Under the pieces are notes generated by a model, which worked only from the letters and a program-made list of their open reading frames with translations, was not told where the DNA came from and searched no databases. From positions 1-64,000 of the forward strand of contig JAFSPP010000014.1 in the NCBI GenBank assembly GCA_017451425.1: DNA of 64,000 nt. The letters run 5' to 3'. The position numbers were made by a program, and so were the translations under genes. Every line of letters starts with the position of its first letter. Position 1 is the first letter of the stretch. Below are positions 15,483-24,865 of the stretch, piece after piece. This stretch comes from Clostridia bacterium (GTDB lineage Bacteria; Bacillota; Clostridia; Oscillospirales; Acutalibacteraceae).

Positions 15483-16283
15483 TTACATGGCGAGTTCCTG
15501 AATATAGAACATGTATTCAGAGAGCTGTACGCCGAATTCGGGGCCGCCCTTCATGATAAGCTGACGGTTTGCAGTCATCTTGAACATGTCGCCCTTGCCC
15601 ATGAGAATCATAAGCGCGGATACGGGGCAGTCAAACGCCATTGTAAAGAACGGGTCAGATCTCGGATAAAGTCCCTTACCCGCCTTTGACTGACCGTTAC
15701 CTACATGGAGATAAGCGGCGAGGTCGGGATAACCGATAACCTCGAACTGATAGCAGCGGTCGGGTGATTTCTTAACCCACTCCGCAACTTTCGGATTGCC
15801 CATCTTGTTGAGGGCTGAAATACCGGTTGAAAGAAGATAGAAGAAGCACTTTATGGTGAGAAGCTGTGTCTTCTCATCCTCTGGAATCTCAGTCGCCGTA
15901 AGGACTGATGACATCTTGAGGAGAACCATCATAAAGAGAGCAAACTTCGGAAGGCTTCTTATTTTGAAGAAAGGAAGCTGTGAGAAATCGCCCTTCATGA
16001 AGGCATTCATCTTCTCCATTGAGGAGAAAGCGAGTTCGCCGGAGATTCTCTTCCTGCCGGTGTAGACACCCTGGTGAACTTCCCATACACCGTCTTCAAC
16101 TATGAAGTGTACGGCTTCCTTGCCCTTGCCGCCTGTCTTGGCGGAAACCTGATAAACCGCGTTTATCCTGAGCAGTGTGTAGAGTTTGTTGATAAGCGGA
16201 TCATCGGTTGCTATTACTTTCATGAGAGGTAAAGCACCTGCCATGAAAACTTTGTTTATATAACGAGTTTCATCGTTTGGCAT
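15483..16283 (-). CDS. SCP2-like (sterol carrier protein 2 fold) protein A
   Basis: 266 residues, no signal peptide. I assign it to the SCP2 lipid-binding fold from two similar halves: AVHFIVEDGVWEV followed by FSSMEKMNAFMKGDFSQLP, and a C-terminal FDCPVSALMILMGKGDMFK plus LIMKGGPEFGVQLSEYM, which resembles the SCP2 pattern of a hydrophobic strand, a G-K/D-containing helix and a final G-D/P-E-x-A-x-x-L. A hydrophobic helix lies near residues 125-160. SCP2 proteins bind acyl chains or other hydrophobic ligands. It is the last gene of the transketolase/aminotransferase operon (17-base gap). GGGGAGG precedes the ATG. Assignment is by pattern only. Confidence 0.6.
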   Translation of the reverse strand: MPNDETRYINKVFMAGALPLMKVIATDDPLINKLYTLLRINAVYQVSAKTGGKGKEAVHFIVEDGVWEVHQGVYTGRKRISGELAFSSMEKMNAFMKGDFSQLPFFKIRSLPKFALFMMVLLKMSSVLTATEIPEDEKTQLLTIKCFFYLLSTGISALNKMGNPKVAEWVKKSPDRCYQFEVIGYPDLAAYLHVGNGQSKAGKGLYPRSDPFFTMAFDCPVSALMILMGKGDMFKMTANRQLIMKGGPEFGVQLSEYMFYIQELAM

Positions 16284-16300
16284 AATTCTTTCCTCCCCTA

Positions 16301-17314
16301 TTAATACTCATCTTCCCAGTTGTCCCTGCCGCCGAGCTTGACACCGAGCAGATCGGCTGCGGCTGCTGCCACGCCGTTTGCATCAATGCCGGCTATTGTG
16401 AGGAGGTCCTCCTGGAGTCCTATTGTCGAGAAGCTGTTGTCATGACCGAGCATCTTGAACTTGCAGGGTCTGCCGTATTCGGCAATGACTTCAGCGACGG
16501 CTGAGCCGAGGCCGCCCTGAAGGACATGGTCCTCAACGGTAACAATACAGCCTGTCTCGTCAATCGCACGGATGATAGCCTCTTTGTCTATAGGCTTGAG
16601 TGTGTGCATGTTGAGTACGCGTGCATGGATATCACAGTCATACTCGAGCATGTTTGCGGCCTGAAGTGCCTGATAAACACCTGCACCGATACCTATGAAC
16701 GTGGCATCTCTGCCCTTCTTGAGTTCATCGGCCTTGTCCCATACGAAGTTTACGGAATCCGGTCCGCCGCCGTAAACGACTGCGTCAAATCCGCGGTTGA
16801 TACGGATGTAAACGGGACCCGGGATATCGTAGGATGCCAGAACGAGTTTGTATGCTTCTGCACCGTCTGCGGGACACATGACAGTCATGTTCGGAAGAGA
16901 ACGTGCAACTGCAAGGTCGATAATCGCATGGTGCGTGGAGCCTGCCTGTCCGAAGGATGTGCCCGCATGTGATGCAAGAATCTTTACGGGTACATTCTGG
17001 TAGCAGATATCCGTGTGAATCTGATCAAGGGAACGTGCGGCTGCAAAAATCGAGAAGGTCGATGCATAAGGCACGAATCCGTTCTTTGCGAGACCCGCGG
17101 CAATACCGAACATGTTCTGCTCGGCTATACCCACGTTTATGAGTCTCTCGGGGAAAGCCTTTACGAACGGTGCTATTTTGGTGGACTTTGCAAGGTCCGC
17201 CGTGAGAGCAATAACGTCAGCATGCTTTTCGCCGAGGTCGTGAAGTGCTTTACCGTAGTATTCAGCAGTAGTGAGCTGTTCAGCCTCAATACTGGTATAC
17301 GCCATTCCGCCCAT
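16301..17314 (-). CDS. Transketolase-like protein, C-terminal subunit
   Basis: 337 residues. Equivalent to the pyrimidine-binding and C-terminal domains of transketolase or DXP synthase: GIAEQNMFGIAAGLAKNG has the conserved Glu that activates thiamine diphosphate, LASHAGTSFGQAGSTHH follows, and PADGAEAYKL starts the C-terminal domain. Together with the next gene upstream it forms one complete two-subunit enzyme. The ATG overlaps the TAA of that gene by one base (TAATG), so translation is coupled, with GGAGGG upstream. Split transketolases occur in sugar and sugar-derivative pathways; the substrate here is not evident from the sequence. Confidence 0.88.
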   Translation of the reverse strand: MGGMAYTSIEAEQLTTAEYYGKALHDLGEKHADVIALTADLAKSTKIAPFVKAFPERLINVGIAEQNMFGIAAGLAKNGFVPYASTFSIFAAARSLDQIHTDICYQNVPVKILASHAGTSFGQAGSTHHAIIDLAVARSLPNMTVMCPADGAEAYKLVLASYDIPGPVYIRINRGFDAVVYGGGPDSVNFVWDKADELKKGRDATFIGIGAGVYQALQAANMLEYDCDIHARVLNMHTLKPIDKEAIIRAIDETGCIVTVEDHVLQGGLGSAVAEVIAEYGRPCKFKMLGHDNSFSTIGLQEDLLTIAGIDANGVAAAAADLLGVKLGGRDNWEDEY

Positions 17315-18210
17315 TATTTGCCCTCCTTTTCCGCACGCTCGCAGCGCTCTTTGTAATAAGCGTCAAGTGACGCAAATGCTTTGGCAGCCTTCTCGTCATC
17401 AAGGGAGCCGTAATGCCAGAGGTAGTTGTCCTTCATGAAGTCAACGCCCTCGCCCTTGAATGTGTCGAAGACAATTGCGGTCGGCTTGTCGCCTCCCTTG
17501 TTGCGATACTCTATCGCAGCTTCCAGAGCCTCATTGATTTCGGAAAGATTGTGTCCGTCAACCCTGTAAGTGTTGCAGTTGAATGCATTGAACTTCCTGT
17601 CGAGAGGTTCGATGTTCATCTCATCGGCAACACGTCCGTCAATCATGCACTTGTTGTTGTCAACCATGATGACGAGGTTTGAGAGTTTGAACTGAGCGGC
17701 ACTCATTATGCCTTCCCAGTTTGAGCCCTCGTTCATTTCACCGTCGCCGCAGAGAACAAAGGTCATATAGTCCTTGTTGCGGAACCTGGCTGCAAGGGCA
17801 GCACCTACGCCGAGTGAAATTCCGTGTCCGAGTGAACCGGTCGAGAAATCGACACCTTTGACTTTGTTTGAGTCAAGATGCATGCCTATCTTTGCTCCGG
17901 TGAGGTTGAATATCTTCAGCTCCTCAACAGGCATGTAACCGTAATCCACGAGAACAGGGGCATAACCTACGGCAGCATGACCCTTTGAGAGTACAAAGCG
18001 GTCTCTGTCCTCGTATTCGGGATTCTTCGGATCGAGTTTCATGATTCTGTAATAGAGCACCGTCAGGATATCCATACAGGACATGGCGCCTCCGATATGT
18101 CCCGAACCGCCCCAGATGGCTGTCTGAAGAGTCAGACGACGAAGTTCGTCGGCCTTCTTTTCAAGGCGGAGCCATTCGGCCTTATCGAAAGGCCCGTAAT
18201 TTGCCGGCAT
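17314..18210 (-). CDS. Transketolase-like protein, N-terminal subunit
   Basis: 298 residues. Thiamine diphosphate-binding half: SGHIGGAMSCMDILTVLYY, SKGHAAVGYAPVL, TGSLGHGISLGVGAALAAR, and the Mg/ThDP motif GDGEMNEGSNWEGIM...VDNNK. Length fits family two-gene transketolases. Transketolases move a two-carbon ketol unit from a ketose to an aldehyde. It lies between the aminotransferase (18-base gap) and the C-terminal subunit. Because the operon also holds two SCP2-like proteins and no sugar-catabolic enzymes, a dedicated biosynthetic acceptor seems more likely than the pentose phosphate pathway; that is inference. Confidence 0.9.
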   Translation of the reverse strand: MPANYGPFDKAEWLRLEKKADELRRLTLQTAIWGGSGHIGGAMSCMDILTVLYYRIMKLDPKNPEYEDRDRFVLSKGHAAVGYAPVLVDYGYMPVEELKIFNLTGAKIGMHLDSNKVKGVDFSTGSLGHGISLGVGAALAARFRNKDYMTFVLCGDGEMNEGSNWEGIMSAAQFKLSNLVIMVDNNKCMIDGRVADEMNIEPLDRKFNAFNCNTYRVDGHNLSEINEALEAAIEYRNKGGDKPTAIVFDTFKGEGVDFMKDNYLWHYGSLDDEKAAKAFASLDAYYKERCERAEKEGK

Positions 18211-18228
18211 TTGAATTATCTCCTTTCT

Positions 18229-19503
18229 TCACTTTATAAGACCCATGTCGGGATGACGCTCGGCCACAACCGAGAAGGCATCATCAGCGACATCGATAGT
18301 GTACTCGATATCTTCATCGGTAAGCGCCGCATTGATAAAGTGATTATGATGCGACGTAAAGAAAATTCCGCGGCTTACACACTCCGCTACCCATTCCTGA
18401 TGCAGGAAAAGGCTGTCATCATTCGCAATGCGGAAATAGAAGAGCGCGGGTTCACCCGATACGACGAGGTCGATATTGTGTCTCTTGCCCGCTTCGACGA
18501 GTCCCTGTGTGAGCTTTGTGCCCTTCTCACGGAACATGGTCGGGATGTCGAGTTTCTTCATCTTGTTTATGCAGGCAATACAGGCCGCAAACGGCTCGGC
18601 AGAGAGCCAGTATGAACCTGTGTATACGACAGAGGAAGCAGTGTTCTTCATATGTTCGCCGCCGCAGACGCATGACATGTTGTAGCCGTTTGCAAGCGCC
18701 TTGCAGAAGCAGATGAGGTCTGCCTTGAAGCCGTAATAATGGTCTGAGCCGGCAAGATCGAGACGGAAACCGGTACGGACGTCATCGATGACGAGAACCA
18801 TTCCGTGGTCATCACAGAACTTGCGGACCGCAGCCCACTGTTCCTTGGTGGCGCAGACATTATCGTAGAAATTGCCGTGGTCATACGGCTGGGCAATGAT
18901 ACCTGCAATATCACCGTGGTTTTCATCATAAGCCCTCTGAAGAGCCTCCATGTCAAACCAAGGAATTATAATGTTGTTCGCTACCTCTTCGGGAAGGATA
19001 CCGGGATAGTCGGCTTTCTGGGCCCACTGGAAGTCACCGTGATAGTAACCCTTGAAGAGGATCATCTTCTTTTTGCCTGTATGAGCTCTTGCGCACATGA
19101 CACCGAAGGTTGTCGCGTCGGAGCCGTTCTTCATGAAGAAGGCCCAGTCAGCGCAGTCGACAGTGTCCTTGAGAAGTTCCGCGCACTCTACCATTTTGTA
19201 CGATACGGAGGTTGTACAGTTGCCTTTTCTGAGTTGTTCTATGGCAGCGGCGTCTACATCATCATCGCAATAACCCAAAACGTTCGGACCGTAGGCGCAC
19301 ATATAGTCGATGTAGCGGTTGCCGTCCACATCCCAGAAATATGTACCCTTGGCATGGTCACTCATAAGTGGCCACTTTGTAATCGGCAGGAAAAGACCCT
19401 CCGAGGGACCGAGGTGGCCGTATACGCCTGACGGGACAGCAGCGAGCGCCCTGTCAAACCACTTTTTTGATTCCGTGTGTGTATATTCAGGATATTTACT
19501 CAT
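18229..19503 (-). CDS. Class III PLP-dependent aminotransferase (glutamate-1-semialdehyde aminotransferase-like)
   Basis: 424 residues from ATG 19503, which has GGAGGG eight bases upstream; an earlier in-frame start would overlap the previous gene. Fold-type I class III features: FMKNGSDATTFGVMCARAHTG, GYYHGDFQW, VIDDVRTGFR (PLP-binding Asp) and FCKALANGY with the Schiff-base lysine. It most resembles HemL-type or amino-acid/keto-sugar aminotransferases, but no haem genes are nearby. In this operon it could aminate the hydroxyketone made by the transketolase. The substrate is unknown. Unlike HemL it has many cysteines (CFCKA, CVCGG, CIACINK). Confidence 0.85.
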   Translation of the reverse strand: MSKYPEYTHTESKKWFDRALAAVPSGVYGHLGPSEGLFLPITKWPLMSDHAKGTYFWDVDGNRYIDYMCAYGPNVLGYCDDDVDAAAIEQLRKGNCTTSVSYKMVECAELLKDTVDCADWAFFMKNGSDATTFGVMCARAHTGKKKMILFKGYYHGDFQWAQKADYPGILPEEVANNIIIPWFDMEALQRAYDENHGDIAGIIAQPYDHGNFYDNVCATKEQWAAVRKFCDDHGMVLVIDDVRTGFRLDLAGSDHYYGFKADLICFCKALANGYNMSCVCGGEHMKNTASSVVYTGSYWLSAEPFAACIACINKMKKLDIPTMFREKGTKLTQGLVEAGKRHNIDLVVSGEPALFYFRIANDDSLFLHQEWVAECVSRGIFFTSHHNHFINAALTDEDIEYTIDVADDAFSVVAERHPDMGLIK

Positions 19504-19516
19504 TATCTGTCCCTCC

Positions 19517-20281
19517 TTACGCAAGATAAGCACTTACTCTGTCCAGGATGCGGTTTATGTTGTCAATCATATTGCACATACCCGCAAGACGGATATTGCC
19601 CGCACAGAGTTCAGCCATGGTCGACGCCGTTCCGTTAAAGAGCGAGTTTGCAAGATCAATTGAGTTGAATTCCATTATTGCACGCGGTTTTTCCGATTTT
19701 TCCTTCCTGAGGGAAAGGATATGGTCTTTTGCGATAACCGTTACATATACCTTGTCGGAAATGCCCATTGAAATCTCGCCGTCAACAATGTTCGAAGCGG
19801 ATACTTTGCTTATTTCATCGGTGTTTCCGAGCGCACATATTGCGCCGCCTATGACGTACATTGTCAGAATTGTTGATTTTTCAAAAAACTCTCTGTCCTT
19901 AAGGTCGGAATCTGACGGTCTCAGATACCGTGTGAGAATGTTAGTGAGTTTTGTAAACGGACCGAGCAGGAATGTAAGAACCTGCTTGGGGTTCTTTGAA
20001 GGAATTCCCGGCTTTGAATTGTCAATCAGGTTGTTGAAGCCGTTCGGTGACAAAAATGACATTTTACATGTGCAACCGGCGTCACCTTCGGTCAGTTTAC
20101 AGCCGTCTTTCGTGAAATTGAGAGTGAAGCAGGGGCCTCCTTTTACGTCAAAGCAAAAGTTTACGGGCCTCTCAAGGCCCTGACAGATTGCCTTGGCTTC
20201 GCTGTCAAGATCACACAGATTTTCAAGTGCAGCAAGCACACCGTACGCGTTTACAAACGCCATAGCTTTTGCATCTTTCAA
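19517..20281 (-). CDS. SCP2-like protein B, first gene of the transketolase/aminotransferase operon
   Basis: 254 residues from TTG 20281, with AGGAGGAG eight to nine bases upstream; an internal ATG (20260) is a weaker choice. The two-part pattern resembles protein A: RPVNFCFDVKGGPCFTLNF with LSPNGFNNLID in the first half, and IMEFNSIDLANSLFNGTAST with AELCAGNIRLAGMCNMIDNI in the second, both close to SCP2 lipid-carrier spacing. A hydrophobic stretch (ILTMYVIGGAICALG) lies near the middle. No signal peptide. It is 13 bases upstream of the aminotransferase start. Lipid or hydrophobic ligand binding is inferred, not shown. Confidence 0.6.
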   Translation of the reverse strand: MKDAKAMAFVNAYGVLAALENLCDLDSEAKAICQGLERPVNFCFDVKGGPCFTLNFTKDGCKLTEGDAGCTCKMSFLSPNGFNNLIDNSKPGIPSKNPKQVLTFLLGPFTKLTNILTRYLRPSDSDLKDREFFEKSTILTMYVIGGAICALGNTDEISKVSASNIVDGEISMGISDKVYVTVIAKDHILSLRKEKSEKPRAIMEFNSIDLANSLFNGTASTMAELCAGNIRLAGMCNMIDNINRILDRVSAYLA

Positions 20282-20405: not shown

Positions 20406-20437
20406 TTGTGGAAGTCCGTCACCCCAAGTGTTATAAT
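20406..20437 (+). promoter_or_regulatory. Promoter of ald
   Basis: TATAAT (20432-20437) preceded by TGT, an extended -10. The -35 is poor (TTGTGG at 20406-20411 would be 20 bases away). Transcription would start about 50 bases before the ald start. Confidence 0.5.
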
Positions 20438-20492
20438 CTGGGTGCGTGAAAACACGCAGAAGAAAATTATTCATAAGAATGGAGGTAGAATT

Positions 20493-21653
20493 ATGTTAAT
20501 CGGTATTCCAAAGGAAATCATGCACGAAGAAAACCGCGTGTCCGCAACACCCCAGACGGTTGCAGAATACGTAAAAATGGGCAACACGGTCCTTGTCGAA
20601 TCCGGCGCAGGCAAAGGCGCATACTTCTCTGACGAAGACTATATTGCCGCGGGCGCGCAAATAACCGAAGACGCAGAAACAGTTTATTCAGAAGCCGACG
20701 TCATCCTGAAAGTCAAAGAACCTCTTTTCAATGAATCAAAGGGCAGGCACGAAATTGAAATGATGCACGAAGAACAGTATCTCATAACCTTCATACATCC
20801 CGCCTCCCCTGCAAACCACAACATGGTCAGGCAGATGGCCGAAAAAGGGATTATTTCAATCACCCTTGACGGCATACCGCGTATTCCGAAGGCACAGGCA
20901 ATGGATGCCCTTATTTCCATGTCTGCCTGCGCAGGTTACAAGGGAATGCTCATGGCCGCCGATCGCTTACCGTCATTCATGCCGGGCATAATGAGCTCAT
21001 CCGGCATGACAGATCCCGCAAAAGTCCTCGTGTTGGGCGTGGGAGTAGCCGGTATGAGGGCACTGATAACGGCAAAATCCCTCGGTGCCGAAACCTACGG
21101 CGCGGACATACACCCCAAAGGCAGGCAAAATGCCGTGGACTGCGGTGCCGTAAGCATCGACATTTCGGTTGATCCTGACCTCGCAATGGACTCCGACGGA
21201 AAGACTCTCCGTCTGCCCGAGGAAGTCCTCGCGCAAAAGCGCGAAGTACTGGCGGAGCACCTCCCCGATATGGACATAGTGTTCTGTTCGGCTCTCATTC
21301 CGGGAAAGGTCGCCCCTATCCTCATAACCGAGGACATGGTAAAAAAGATGCGCCCCGGTTCTGTCATAGTGGACATCTCCATTGACCAGGGCGGAAACTG
21401 TGAAATCACTCCGAAAGGCGATATTGAAATCAAACACGGAGTGACCATAATCGGCACAAAGAACATTCCCGGGCTCTTACCCACGAGTTCAACAAGGATG
21501 TTCGCAAACAATGTTCTTGAATTGATGAAACACATCACAAAAGACGGAAAAATCGAACTCGACACAGACGACGAAATCATCAGGTCAGCTCTGACGACCG
21601 CAGGAGGAAAAATAGTTCACGCCGGGGCTCTTGAAGCAATGGGAATCTCATAA
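20493..21653 (+). CDS. ald: Alanine dehydrogenase
   Basis: 386 residues from ATG 20493, with GGAGG at 20481-20485; the longer in-frame start lacks family resemblance. NAD-dependent oxidative deamination of alanine to pyruvate, or the reverse. N-terminal IGIPKEIMHEENRVSATP is the AlaDH/transhydrogenase signature; LKVKEP and FIHPAS carry the catalytic Lys and His; VLGVGVAGMRAL is the NAD-binding glycine loop. It is slightly longer than the usual 370 residues because of a segment around residues 225-250 (DSDGKTLRLPEE). It is single, divergent from the transketolase operon, and ends in a shared terminator. Confidence 0.93.
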   Translation: MLIGIPKEIMHEENRVSATPQTVAEYVKMGNTVLVESGAGKGAYFSDEDYIAAGAQITEDAETVYSEADVILKVKEPLFNESKGRHEIEMMHEEQYLITFIHPASPANHNMVRQMAEKGIISITLDGIPRIPKAQAMDALISMSACAGYKGMLMAADRLPSFMPGIMSSSGMTDPAKVLVLGVGVAGMRALITAKSLGAETYGADIHPKGRQNAVDCGAVSIDISVDPDLAMDSDGKTLRLPEEVLAQKREVLAEHLPDMDIVFCSALIPGKVAPILITEDMVKKMRPGSVIVDISIDQGGNCEITPKGDIEIKHGVTIIGTKNIPGLLPTSSTRMFANNVLELMKHITKDGKIELDTDDEIIRSALTTAGGKIVHAGALEAMGIS

Positions 21654-22703: not shown

Positions 22704-24809
22704 TTATTTTATGGAGAGTGCCGCTCTGTAAGCGGTATGTGTGGCATTTGCAACACGGCCGACCTGTGCGGCATCACCGACAGAGCATGTCGGAGCAATT
22801 GCCTTGATATCGTCGGAGAGACCGGTCGCCCTGACACCGAGAGCAAGAACAACATAGTCACAAGGAACTGTCTTGCGGCGTCCGGGAACGTCCGCGTCTT
22901 CAAGAATGACGCAGTCGCTCTTCATCTCGACAAGCTTGTAGCCTGTGATGAACTGTGTACCCTTAGCCTCAAGCTTCGGAACGACGTCATCAAGATGCTG
23001 CTGCCATGTGCCCGGAGCAATCTCCTTGGCCATTTCAACGATTGTGATCTTGTTTCCGTCCTCAGCAAGGAGTTCGGAGGTCTCAAGTCCGGTCATACCG
23101 GAACCGATTACGGCGATGTTCTTGCCCGTGGGCCTGAACTGACCTGTCAGCACCTCTGTTACCGTGCATACGTTGGGAAGGTCATAACCGGGGATTTTCG
23201 GCTTGATTGCAGCGCCGCCGGTAGCGTCGATAATAGCTATCGGAGCGAGAGCCTTAACCGATTCGGGAGTTGCGGGAGCATTGACCCTGATCTCTACGCC
23301 GGCCTTGTCACAGGCGGTCTTGAGGTCCTGGATAGCCCAGCGGAGCTTCTCCTTCTTCGGAGGCCTTGCGGCAAACTCGAACTGTCCGCCGAGATAGTCA
23401 TTCTTCTCAAACAGTGTTACCTTGAATCCGCGCTGGCCGAGTGTCTTGGCCGCCATGAGGCCTGCAGGGCCGCCGCCGATAACGACAACGGGTCTGCCTG
23501 CGCCGTCCTTCGGAGGTTCAAGGCTGTAATCGAGTTCCTTACAGGCGCGGGGATTAAGCGCGCATTCAAGGGCGGTGTTCTGCATTGCACCGTGCATCAT
23601 TGACTCTATACAGTAGAGGCAGCAGATACAGCGCTGGATGTCCTCGGGATGTCCCGCCTCAGCCTTTGAAGCCCAGTAAGGGTCGGCAATGAGCGGACGG
23701 CCGAGGCCGATGATATCCTGTGTTCCCTCTTCGAGCTGCTTCTCTGCCTGCTCGGGAGTACGGATGAGATTGGCTGCGATGACGGGTATTTTGACTGCGG
23801 CCTTGACAGCGGCTGCATTGCCCTTTCTCCAGCCGAGTTCGAATGTTGTCGGCTCAAGCCAGGAGTTCATCGTGTCATAAGTACCCGAAGAGATATCTAT
23901 GGCGTCTATGCCGTATGACTCGAGCATCTTTGCAATCTCAACACCTTCATCGAGGCGGAGACCCATGTCGTAGCCGTACATGCGATAGTATTCATCAACC
24001 GTAAGACGTACGGTAATCGGATAGTCAGGTCCGCACTTGGCTCTGATTTTTTCGATAATTTCCTTTATGATGCGGCAGCGGTTTTCAAGAGATCCGCCGT
24101 ATTCATCCTCACGTCTGTTGGTATAGGGTGAGAGGAACTGCTGGAGCAGGTAACCGTGCGATGCATGGAGCATTACACCGTCAATGCCGGCCTCTTTGCA
24201 GCGGCGGGCGCCCTCAGCGAACTCGTCTTCTATCTTGCCTATCTCCCACTTTGTGAGAGCACGTGTCTTCTGTGTCTTTACGGGAGAAGAGCCTATGCCT
24301 GTGGGAACGTTCGATGCAGATACAACCGGAAGATAAAAATGGTGCATGAAGGGGTTTTCGAAATAATCAAAGTACTTTGTCATTCCGAAGAAGGCCTTCC
24401 ACCACAGAGGTCCCACGGGTGTGCCGCCGAGGACATCAGCGAGTTTCCATGCGGTTACTACGAGCTGATAGGTCTGACGTCCCGTGTGATGCAGCTGCAC
24501 GAAAACCTTAGCGCCGTACTTATGGCACTCGTCCGCAAGTTTTCTGAGCCCGGGAATACAGTGATTGTGTGTTACCGAGAGCTGAAGCGGGCTTGTTGCG
24601 CCTGTCCAGTCGGAAATACGCGTAACCTCAGTCTGGATGAGGCCGGTGCCGCCCTTTGCGCGCTCACCGTAATAGGCGATAAGTTTATCGCCCGCTGTAC
24701 CGTCAAGTTCCGCAACACCAACGAGCATGGGCTCAAGGGCAATACGGTTCTTGATTTCGACGTTGCCTATCTTGATAGGCTCAAACATCTTCGGATAGTA
24801 CTGGTTCAT
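22704..24809 (-). CDS. Old Yellow Enzyme-type NADH:flavin oxidoreductase with FAD/NAD domain
   Basis: 701 residues from ATG 24809 (GGAGCG nine bases upstream). Three modules: an FMN TIM barrel to about residue 375; a cysteine cluster CICCLYCIE...NPRAC for a [4Fe-4S] cluster; then FAD (GGGPAGLMAAKTLGQRG) and NAD (VIGSGMTGLETSE) Rossmann folds. This is the architecture of 2,4-dienoyl-CoA reductase, trimethylamine dehydrogenase and clostridial enoate and bile acid (BaiCD/BaiH) reductases. It probably reduces an activated C=C bond with NADH; the substrate cannot be read from sequence. It is co-transcribed with hprK. Confidence 0.87.
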   Translation of the reverse strand: MNQYYPKMFEPIKIGNVEIKNRIALEPMLVGVAELDGTAGDKLIAYYGERAKGGTGLIQTEVTRISDWTGATSPLQLSVTHNHCIPGLRKLADECHKYGAKVFVQLHHTGRQTYQLVVTAWKLADVLGGTPVGPLWWKAFFGMTKYFDYFENPFMHHFYLPVVSASNVPTGIGSSPVKTQKTRALTKWEIGKIEDEFAEGARRCKEAGIDGVMLHASHGYLLQQFLSPYTNRREDEYGGSLENRCRIIKEIIEKIRAKCGPDYPITVRLTVDEYYRMYGYDMGLRLDEGVEIAKMLESYGIDAIDISSGTYDTMNSWLEPTTFELGWRKGNAAAVKAAVKIPVIAANLIRTPEQAEKQLEEGTQDIIGLGRPLIADPYWASKAEAGHPEDIQRCICCLYCIESMMHGAMQNTALECALNPRACKELDYSLEPPKDGAGRPVVVIGGGPAGLMAAKTLGQRGFKVTLFEKNDYLGGQFEFAARPPKKEKLRWAIQDLKTACDKAGVEIRVNAPATPESVKALAPIAIIDATGGAAIKPKIPGYDLPNVCTVTEVLTGQFRPTGKNIAVIGSGMTGLETSELLAEDGNKITIVEMAKEIAPGTWQQHLDDVVPKLEAKGTQFITGYKLVEMKSDCVILEDADVPGRRKTVPCDYVVLALGVRATGLSDDIKAIAPTCSVGDAAQVGRVANATHTAYRAALSIK

Positions 24810-24865
24810 GATAATCGCTCCTTCAAGATTTTTTGCCAAACGGTGGTTTCAAGTTAACCTCATAG

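What the first reader, a model, noticed from the sequence alone, without database searches (positions are those of the whole stretch)
15483..20281. SCP2 - aminotransferase - split transketolase - SCP2 operon: candidate for an undescribed aminated lipid or aminoalcohol pathway
Five genes are tightly packed in one operon: two proteins with SCP2-like (acyl-binding) patterns flank a class III aminotransferase and a complete two-subunit transketolase. I know of no pathway with this set. Established chemistry: transketolase adds a two-carbon ketol unit to an aldehyde, and an aminotransferase turns a ketone into an amine. With a fatty aldehyde as acceptor, the product would be a 1,3-dihydroxy-2-ketone, and amination would give a 2-amino-1,3-diol, that is a sphingoid-like base made without serine palmitoyltransferase. 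This is inference; a sugar-derived or other hydrophobic acceptor is equally open. No sugar-catabolic genes stand alongside.
Basis: partly seen in the sequence, partly recalled or inferred. Interest (0 to 1): 0.75.

Follow-up and report, generated by a model that had tools for sequence, protein, structure and literature searches.

The report
Lipid-type aminotransferase and transketolase operon
Gut bacteria related to the cholesterol-reducing Eubacterium coprostanoligenes, which lack the genes to make fatty acids, share a five-gene operon that probably strips the amino group from a sphingoid-base-like lipid and then splits its carbon chain with a transketolase altered for oily substrates; no such route was found described in the papers searched.

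Summary
In detail: five tightly packed minus-strand genes encode a double-SCP2 protein, a class III aminotransferase, a split transketolase and a second double-SCP2 protein. The order is intact in 66 of 80 related loci, all from gut-type Clostridia including E. coprostanoligenes, while flanks vary. Three results sharpen the reading. (1) The aminotransferase is not an ordinary GSA aminomutase: its nearest solved relative is FumI, which deaminates the sphingoid-like hydrolysed fumonisin. (2) The transketolase is an accessory paralogue; a canonical split enzyme is encoded elsewhere. It keeps catalytic residues but has lost D469 (Ala or Ser in 65/65), its salt-bridge partner R91, and phosphate-binding R358 (63/65). 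D469A in E. coli transketolase is known to favour a non-hydroxylated aliphatic aldehyde. (3) Operon genomes lack fatty-acid synthesis almost without exception; this genome also has no SPT-like enzyme but has FakA/PlsX/PlsY. Best explanation: a sphingoid base is deaminated at C2, and transketolase cuts C2-C3, giving a fatty aldehyde and passing the ketol to a sugar phosphate. Substrate and direction are inferred; nothing was assayed. FASII loss and partner-gene co-occurrence are partly clade traits.

The parts
19517..20281 (-). SCP2-A: double SCP2-fold protein, 254 aa, first gene of the operon, TTG start
   Evidence: ORF; no Pfam/NCBIfam hit; AlphaFold pLDDT 93.9, C-terminal half matches SCP-2L 1ikt Z 11.0 and SdsA1 SCP2 domain; conserved next to AT in all loci with enough contig
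18229..19503 (-). AT: FumI-like class III PLP aminotransferase (probable ATG start at 19503; longer GTG ORF to 19533)
   Evidence: PF00202 E 2.7e-36; best solved relative FumI 6hbs 275 bits vs 152 for the next, a GSAM; 40 residues invariant in sampled operon ATs shared with FumI but not E. coli HemL or AT2
17314..18210 (-). TKN: N-terminal (ThDP-binding) subunit of accessory split transketolase
   Evidence: PF00456 E 6e-46; best solved match 6yak split-TK N subunit; R91->N
16301..17314 (-). TKC: Pyr + C-terminal subunit of accessory split transketolase
   Evidence: PF02779/PF02780; D469->A, R358->A, E468->Q, L466->F, N522->F with catalytic residues kept
15483..16283 (-). SCP2-B: double SCP2-fold protein, 266 aa, last gene of the operon
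   Evidence: ORF; no Pfam hit; AlphaFold pLDDT 89.7, C-terminal half matches SCP-2L 1ikt Z 11.6 and fatty-acid-bound insect SCP2 1pz4 Z 10.2

Best explanation
The operon is a scavenging pathway for long-chain 2-amino-1,3-diols (free sphingoid bases such as sphinganine or sphingosine, which reach the gut from diet, host and Bacteroides). Step 1: the FumI-like aminotransferase moves the C2 amino group to a keto acid (pyruvate in FumI), giving a 1,3-dihydroxy-2-ketone. Step 2: the accessory transketolase cleaves C2-C3, releasing a fatty aldehyde two carbons shorter than the base (hexadecanal from sphinganine) and passing the glycolaldehyde unit to an aldose phosphate, so that the head becomes a pentose-phosphate intermediate. 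The two double-SCP2 proteins present or hold the greasy intermediates. The aldehyde can then be oxidised (an aldehyde:ferredoxin-oxidoreductase-like gene is present) and reused through FakA-PlsX-PlsY, which suits hosts that cannot make fatty acids. Shown: gene order, folds, enzyme families, residue changes, absence of FASII genes. Inferred: substrate, direction, order of steps, fate of the aldehyde.
For: Conserved order. AT nearest to FumI; FumI transfers the 2-amino group of the sphingoid-like hydrolysed FB1 to pyruvate (PMC2933618). TK: accessory, with a canonical split TK elsewhere; D469 lost (Ala 64, Ser 1 of 65), R91->N in 64 with 1 unresolved, R358->A/S in 63/65, all three kept in 7/7 housekeeping TKs. 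In E. coli TK, D469 salt-bridges R91 (PMC5073344); D469A improves propionaldehyde use only and raises the propionaldehyde/glycolaldehyde activity ratio from 0.04 to 0.20, and several D469 variants take linear aliphatic aldehydes (PMC3657141). SCP2 folds, matches including fatty-acid-bound SCP2 1pz4 and the SCP2 domain of alkylsulfatase SdsA1. FASII ketoacyl synthase missing in own genome and 19 other operon genomes of the 60-relative set and in 24 of 25 named operon genomes including E. coprostanoligenes, the other having one weak partial hit; own genome also lacks FabH/FabD/FabZ/AccB and any Kbl-like (SPT superfamily) hit but has FakA, PlsX, PlsY, ACP and an AOR-like gene. A Novosphingobium FumI homologue sits with a class II aldolase and a sugar kinase, and operon relatives carry an AT + class II aldolase pair nearby: amine to ketone, then C-C cleavage. 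Earlier cholesterol-reducing eubacteria were reported to need plasmenylethanolamine or brain lipid (PMC8468837).
Against: AT is only about 37% identical to FumI, and FumI homologues sit in varied clusters, so family does not fix substrate. Known TKs, including D469S/T variants, favour 3S ketodiols, whereas natural sphinganine is 3R (general knowledge); the TK would need other facial selectivity. Three of four phosphate-contact positions (S385, H461, R520) are retained, so sugar phosphates may still bind. No ceramidase, uptake or aldehyde gene lies in the operon. FASII loss is partly a clade trait: operon-negative G016 and G024, nested among operon genera in the DnaE tree, also lack it, and G088 (60% complete) has TK-SCP2-B and FabF.
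Confidence: 0.4

Rival explanations
1. Same chemistry, opposite direction: transketolase joins a ketol donor to an imported or lipid-derived fatty aldehyde and the aminotransferase makes a sphingoid-like 2-amino-1,3-diol without serine palmitoyltransferase, for membrane lipid.
For: Reactions are reversible in principle; own genome has no SPT-like enzyme and cannot make fatty acids; the operon genes persist in a genome of about 1.1 Mb (G032), which fits a structural role.
Against: No N-acyltransferase, head-group or aldehyde-forming gene recognised in or conserved beside the operon; the characterised relative FumI is a deaminase; aldolase and kinase genes near the operon in relatives suggest breakdown.
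Confidence: 0.15
2. The operon handles another hydrophobic or aryl amino alcohol or amino ketone (for example plant-derived), not a sphingoid base, with the same AT then TK logic.
For: D469 changes also open E. coli TK to aromatic aldehydes and the split TK of Carboxydothermus takes phenylacetaldehyde (PMC7661550); FumI relatives occur in varied clusters.
Against: Two double-SCP2 carriers point to long alkyl or sterol-like ligands; FumI is nearer than any other solved class III aminotransferase.
Confidence: 0.25
3. Sugar route: TK and AT act on an amino sugar or ketose (for example for glycans or an antibiotic-like product) and the SCP2 proteins are structural.
For: S385, H461 and R520 (phosphate contacts) retained; some class III ATs act on sugars (C-6' aminotransferases are among PDB hits).
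Against: Loss of D469 (alpha-hydroxyl recognition), R91 and R358 fits a sugar substrate poorly; no glycan or nucleotide-sugar genes are conserved in the flanks; SCP2 proteins accompany both halves.
Confidence: 0.12
4. The genes are neighbours for regulatory convenience, with no shared pathway (TK as a spare pentose-phosphate enzyme).
For: Two halves (SCP2-A-AT and TKN-TKC-SCP2-B) can separate.
Against: 66 of 80 loci keep all five in order while flanks vary; separated halves still co-occur in G032; the TK active site is re-shaped in a uniform way and a canonical TK exists elsewhere.
Confidence: 0.08

Closest known systems
FumI aminopentol aminotransferase of the Sphingopyxis sp. MTA144 fumonisin (fum) degradation cluster (PDB 6hbs, 6hbv)
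   Same: Closest solved relative of the operon AT; shares 40 family-specific residues; deaminates C2 of a sphingoid-like amino alcohol to a 2-ketone.
   Different: Its substrate has a methyl at C1, so its ketone is no ordinary transketolase donor; about 37% identity; no TK or SCP2 partner is known to me in the fum cluster.
Split transketolase of Carboxydothermus hydrogenoformans (6yak) and canonical transketolase TktA
   Same: Same family, two-subunit layout, ThDP and catalytic residues conserved.
   Different: Operon enzyme lacks D469, R91 and (63/65) R358; it is a second TK next to a canonical one.
Sphingosine kinase / S1P lyase route of sphingoid-base breakdown
   Same: Proposed outcome is alike: fatty aldehyde two carbons shorter plus a two-carbon head piece.
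   Different: S1P lyase is a PLP retro-aldol enzyme acting on the phosphorylated amine and releases phosphoethanolamine (PMC6148460); here the amine would be removed first and a ThDP enzyme would cut.
SCP2 / SCP-2L lipid carriers (human MFE-2 SCP-2L 1ikt, insect SCP2 1pz4, alkylsulfatase SdsA1 C-terminal domain)
   Same: SCP2 fold in both flanking proteins.
   Different: Two SCP2-like domains in tandem, sequence outside the Pfam SCP2 model, tied to an AT-TK pair.
FumI-homologue cluster with class II aldolase and sugar kinase (Novosphingobium capsulatum plasmid, NZ_CP140001)
   Same: FumI-like AT beside C-C cleavage genes.
   Different: Aldolase and sugar kinase rather than a transketolase; function not known to me.

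Membership tests
FumI-type aminopentol aminotransferases | Sequence nearer to FumI than to GSAM (HemL) and other class III ATs | tested here: met
   275 vs 152 bits in PDB search; 40 shared specific residues; in the tree, rooted on the HemL/AT2 group, operon ATs and the FumI clade fall together (split support 0.999), each as its own clade.
FumI-type aminopentol aminotransferases | Transaminates the C2 amine of a sphingoid-like long-chain amino alcohol with pyruvate | not testable with these tools
   Needs purified enzyme.
Transketolase | ThDP-binding and catalytic residues (H26, H66, H100, D155, E160, N185, H261, D381, E411, H473 in E. coli numbering) | tested here: met
   All conserved in 65/65 operon TKs.
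Pentose-phosphate (housekeeping) transketolase | D469 for alpha-hydroxyl recognition with R91 partner, and R358 for phosphate | tested here: not met
   D469->A/S 65/65, R91->N 64 with 1 unresolved, R358->A/S 63/65; all kept in 7 housekeeping TKs; separate canonical TK present.
SCP2 domain proteins | SCP2 fold | tested here: met
   Foldseek E 6.5e-05 and 1.2e-03 to SCP2 chains; VIA Z 11.0 (rmsd 2.9, 110 aligned) and 11.6 (rmsd 3.0, 113 aligned) to 1ikt.
SCP2 domain proteins | Match to Pfam SCP2 model PF02036 | tested here: not met
   No hit for either protein; the only own-genome hit is elsewhere.
SCP2 domain proteins | Binds a hydrophobic ligand in an internal cavity | not testable with these tools
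   Model coordinates could not be analysed for cavities; needs ligand co-purification or crystal structure.
SPT-based sphingolipid synthesis | Alpha-oxoamine synthase (SPT/Kbl-like) gene in the genome | tested here: not met
   tblastn of E. coli Kbl (381 aa) against all 1,481,549 bases held: no hit at E 0.01; assembly 95% complete.
Type II fatty-acid synthesis host | Ketoacyl synthase and partners present | tested here: not met
   No FabF/FabH/FabD/FabZ/AccB; AccC gives only weak partial hits; PF00109 absent in own and 24 of 25 named operon genomes.
Sphingosine-1-phosphate lyase pathway | S1P lyase and long-chain-base kinase genes | not tested
   No search made for these families.

The most novel reading that the evidence does not exclude
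A transketolase-based sphingoid-base lyase pathway: gut Clostridia that cannot make fatty acids break sphingoid bases by transamination and ketol transfer instead of phosphorylation and S1P lyase, with paired double-SCP2 carriers; a linked second aminotransferase, sugar-type kinase and class II aldolase module would handle 4-hydroxylated bases (phytosphingosine) by retro-aldol cleavage.
Probability: 0.25. Interest if true: 0.88.

Novelty: new variant of a known kind. Interest (0 to 1): 0.68.

Why it matters
Many gut Clostridia of this group are known mainly as MAGs and their lipid economy is obscure. If right, this gives a new phosphorylation-free way to cut sphingoid bases, a natural transketolase that already carries the D469 change engineers made for aliphatic aldehydes, and a reason why E. 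coprostanoligenes-type bacteria would depend on host or dietary lipid. It would tie the cholesterol-reducing group to sphingolipid turnover in the gut and can be tested directly with a cultured strain (ATCC 51222) and two purified enzymes.

Tried and rejected
Housekeeping TK: rejected, a canonical split TK exists in every operon genome examined and the operon TK is re-shaped. GSA aminomutase: rejected, FumI is far nearer. SCP2-like as a false impression: rejected by structure prediction, though no Pfam hit. Phylogenetic co-occurrence as proof of function: weakened. AT2 and the FGGY kinase show nearly the same pattern as the operon, but a neighbouring OYE gene used as a control is also confined to operon genera, 8 of 10, and the DnaE tree groups most operon genera together, so clade history and strict thresholds explain much of it. 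FASII association: 0/13 vs 24/30 genomes in the family (Fisher 7e-7, not corrected for relatedness), 0/10 vs 18/40 genera (p 0.009), but partly a clade trait and G088 is an exception. No solved-structure sequence match for SCP2-A; SCP2-B was not searched that way. No paper found linking transketolase with sphingoid-base aminotransfer (one hit, a fungal metabolomics paper); searches on gut sphinganine and E. coprostanoligenes with sphingosine gave, from titles and abstract openings, reviews and microbiome association studies; the library is open-licence PMC papers only. Plasmid search for AT gave only relatives under 60% identity.
Full report
Observation. Downstream lie a ROK kinase and murB, which stay next to the operon only in close relatives. 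Upstream is a divergent AlaDh/PNT-like gene.

Conservation. One genome scan gave 80 loci, from gut-type Clostridia including E. coprostanoligenes ATCC 51222, Clostridium sp. CAG:678 and CAG:217. All five genes keep order and strand in 66; in 8 the contig ends inside the operon; in 6 SCP2-A and AT stand without TK beside them. Flanks vary between groups. In G032 the two halves lie on different contigs and in G008 the order is TKN-TKC-SCP2-B-SCP2-A. So there are two modules, usually joined, still found together when apart in G032.

SCP2 proteins. AlphaFold models (pLDDT 93.9 and 89.7) show two SCP2-like halves in each protein. The C-terminal halves match human MFE-2 SCP-2L (Z 11.0 and 11.6), fatty-acid-bound insect SCP2 and the SCP2 domain of alkylsulfatases. 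That each protein holds two SCP2 domains is read from the secondary-structure order; most alignments cover the C-terminal half. A hydrophobic pocket was not measured.

Aminotransferase. The nearest solved relative is FumI (275 bits; next GSAM 152), confirmed with the E. coprostanoligenes enzyme. Forty positions invariant in the sampled operon ATs are shared with FumI and absent in E. coli HemL and the second aminotransferase AT2. FumI deaminates C2 of hydrolysed fumonisin B1 with pyruvate (PMC2933618). Identity is only about 37% and FumI homologues sit in varied clusters, so this suggests rather than proves a sphingoid-like substrate.

Transketolase. Genomes with the operon also hold a canonical split TK elsewhere. 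Aligned with E. coli TktA and seven housekeeping TKs, 65 operon TKs keep the catalytic and ThDP residues but have D469->A/S (65/65), R91->N (64, one unresolved), R358->A/S (63), and mostly E468->Q, L466->F and N522->F. In E. coli TK, D469 salt-bridges R91 (PMC5073344), and D469A shifts preference to propionaldehyde, with several D469 variants taking linear aliphatic aldehydes (PMC3657141). The operon enzyme thus carries naturally a change that engineers made. S385, H461 and R520 remain, so one partner may still be a phosphorylated sugar. A caution: the variants tabulated there, except those with D469Y, favour 3S products, while natural sphinganine is 3R.

Host. This genome (all 1,481,549 bases held) has no FabF, FabH, FabD, FabZ or AccB and only weak partial AccC hits, but has PlsX and ACP, FakA and PlsY, and no Kbl/SPT-like gene. 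Ketoacyl synthase is absent from the operon genomes among 60 relatives and from 24 of 25 named operon genomes, the other having a weak partial hit. In a 394-genome sample of the order, operon-bearing members of the family had no strong ketoacyl synthase (0/13, one weak hit) against 24/30 others. G088, outside the family and 60% complete, has both. The DnaE tree puts operon-negative G016 and G024, which also lack it, among operon genera with modest support, so absence of FASII is partly a trait of the clade. An aldehyde:ferredoxin-oxidoreductase-like gene with a ferredoxin-like gene nearby is present. Earlier cholesterol-reducing eubacteria were reported to need plasmenylethanolamine or brain lipid (PMC8468837).

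Second module. AT2 plus a two-domain class II aldolase lies near the operon in 11 of the 80 loci. In this genome, on another contig, it sits opposite a TetR gene, a xylulokinase-like FGGY kinase and an LMW phosphatase. AT2 and the kinase follow the operon almost exactly across 60 genomes, but a control gene is also confined to operon genera and operon genera cluster in the tree, so this is moderate evidence only. A Novosphingobium FumI homologue sits with a class II aldolase, a PfkB-type kinase and TetR.

Mechanism. Putting these together, the likeliest path is sphingoid base -> 2-ketone (AT) -> fatty aldehyde + ketol passed to an aldose phosphate (TK), with SCP2 carriers, in bacteria that must scavenge acyl chains. 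Genes, order, folds, residues and gene absences are shown; substrate, direction and fate of products are inferred.

Novelty. The library searched holds no paper joining transketolase and sphingoid-base aminotransfer as a pathway, but it covers open-licence PMC papers only. The enzymes are of known families; the combination and use appear undescribed.

Noticed in passing
window 22704-24839 (-): 711-aa OYE/Fe-S flavoenzyme near BaiCD and bilirubin reductase long form, below the curated cut-offs; a second copy elsewhere in the genome, and strict-threshold homologues confined to operon genera. Possibly a steroid or bile-pigment reductase in this cholesterol-reducer group.
   Followed up: partly
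window 20406-21653 (+): AlaDh/PNT-like gene divergent from the operon, nearest to transhydrogenase alpha but below cut-off.
   Followed up: no
L159:11229-16890 (own genome, contig C21): Second module: LMW phosphatase, FGGY xylulokinase-like, TetR, opposite AT2 and a two-domain class II aldolase; conserved in operon genera.
   Followed up: partly
L175:5623-8237 (own genome): Aldehyde:ferredoxin-oxidoreductase-like gene followed by a ferredoxin-like gene; possible sink for fatty aldehyde.
   Followed up: no
L158:306-2783 (own genome): 826-aa fusion of a xylose-isomerase-like TIM barrel with an AMP-binding acyl ligase.
   Followed up: no
G000 and relatives: Many genomes of this order have no ketoacyl synthase match (172 of 394); how they obtain acyl chains is not clear.
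   Followed up: partly
L119 (Agrobacterium plasmid): A FumI-like AT lies near a fused alpha-ketoacid dehydrogenase E1 alpha/beta (a ThDP enzyme), another AT + ThDP pairing.
   Followed up: no
L272 (G088:C18): TK-SCP2-B half outside the main family, with the D469->A change, in a genome that also has FabF; contig ends before any AT.
   Followed up: partly
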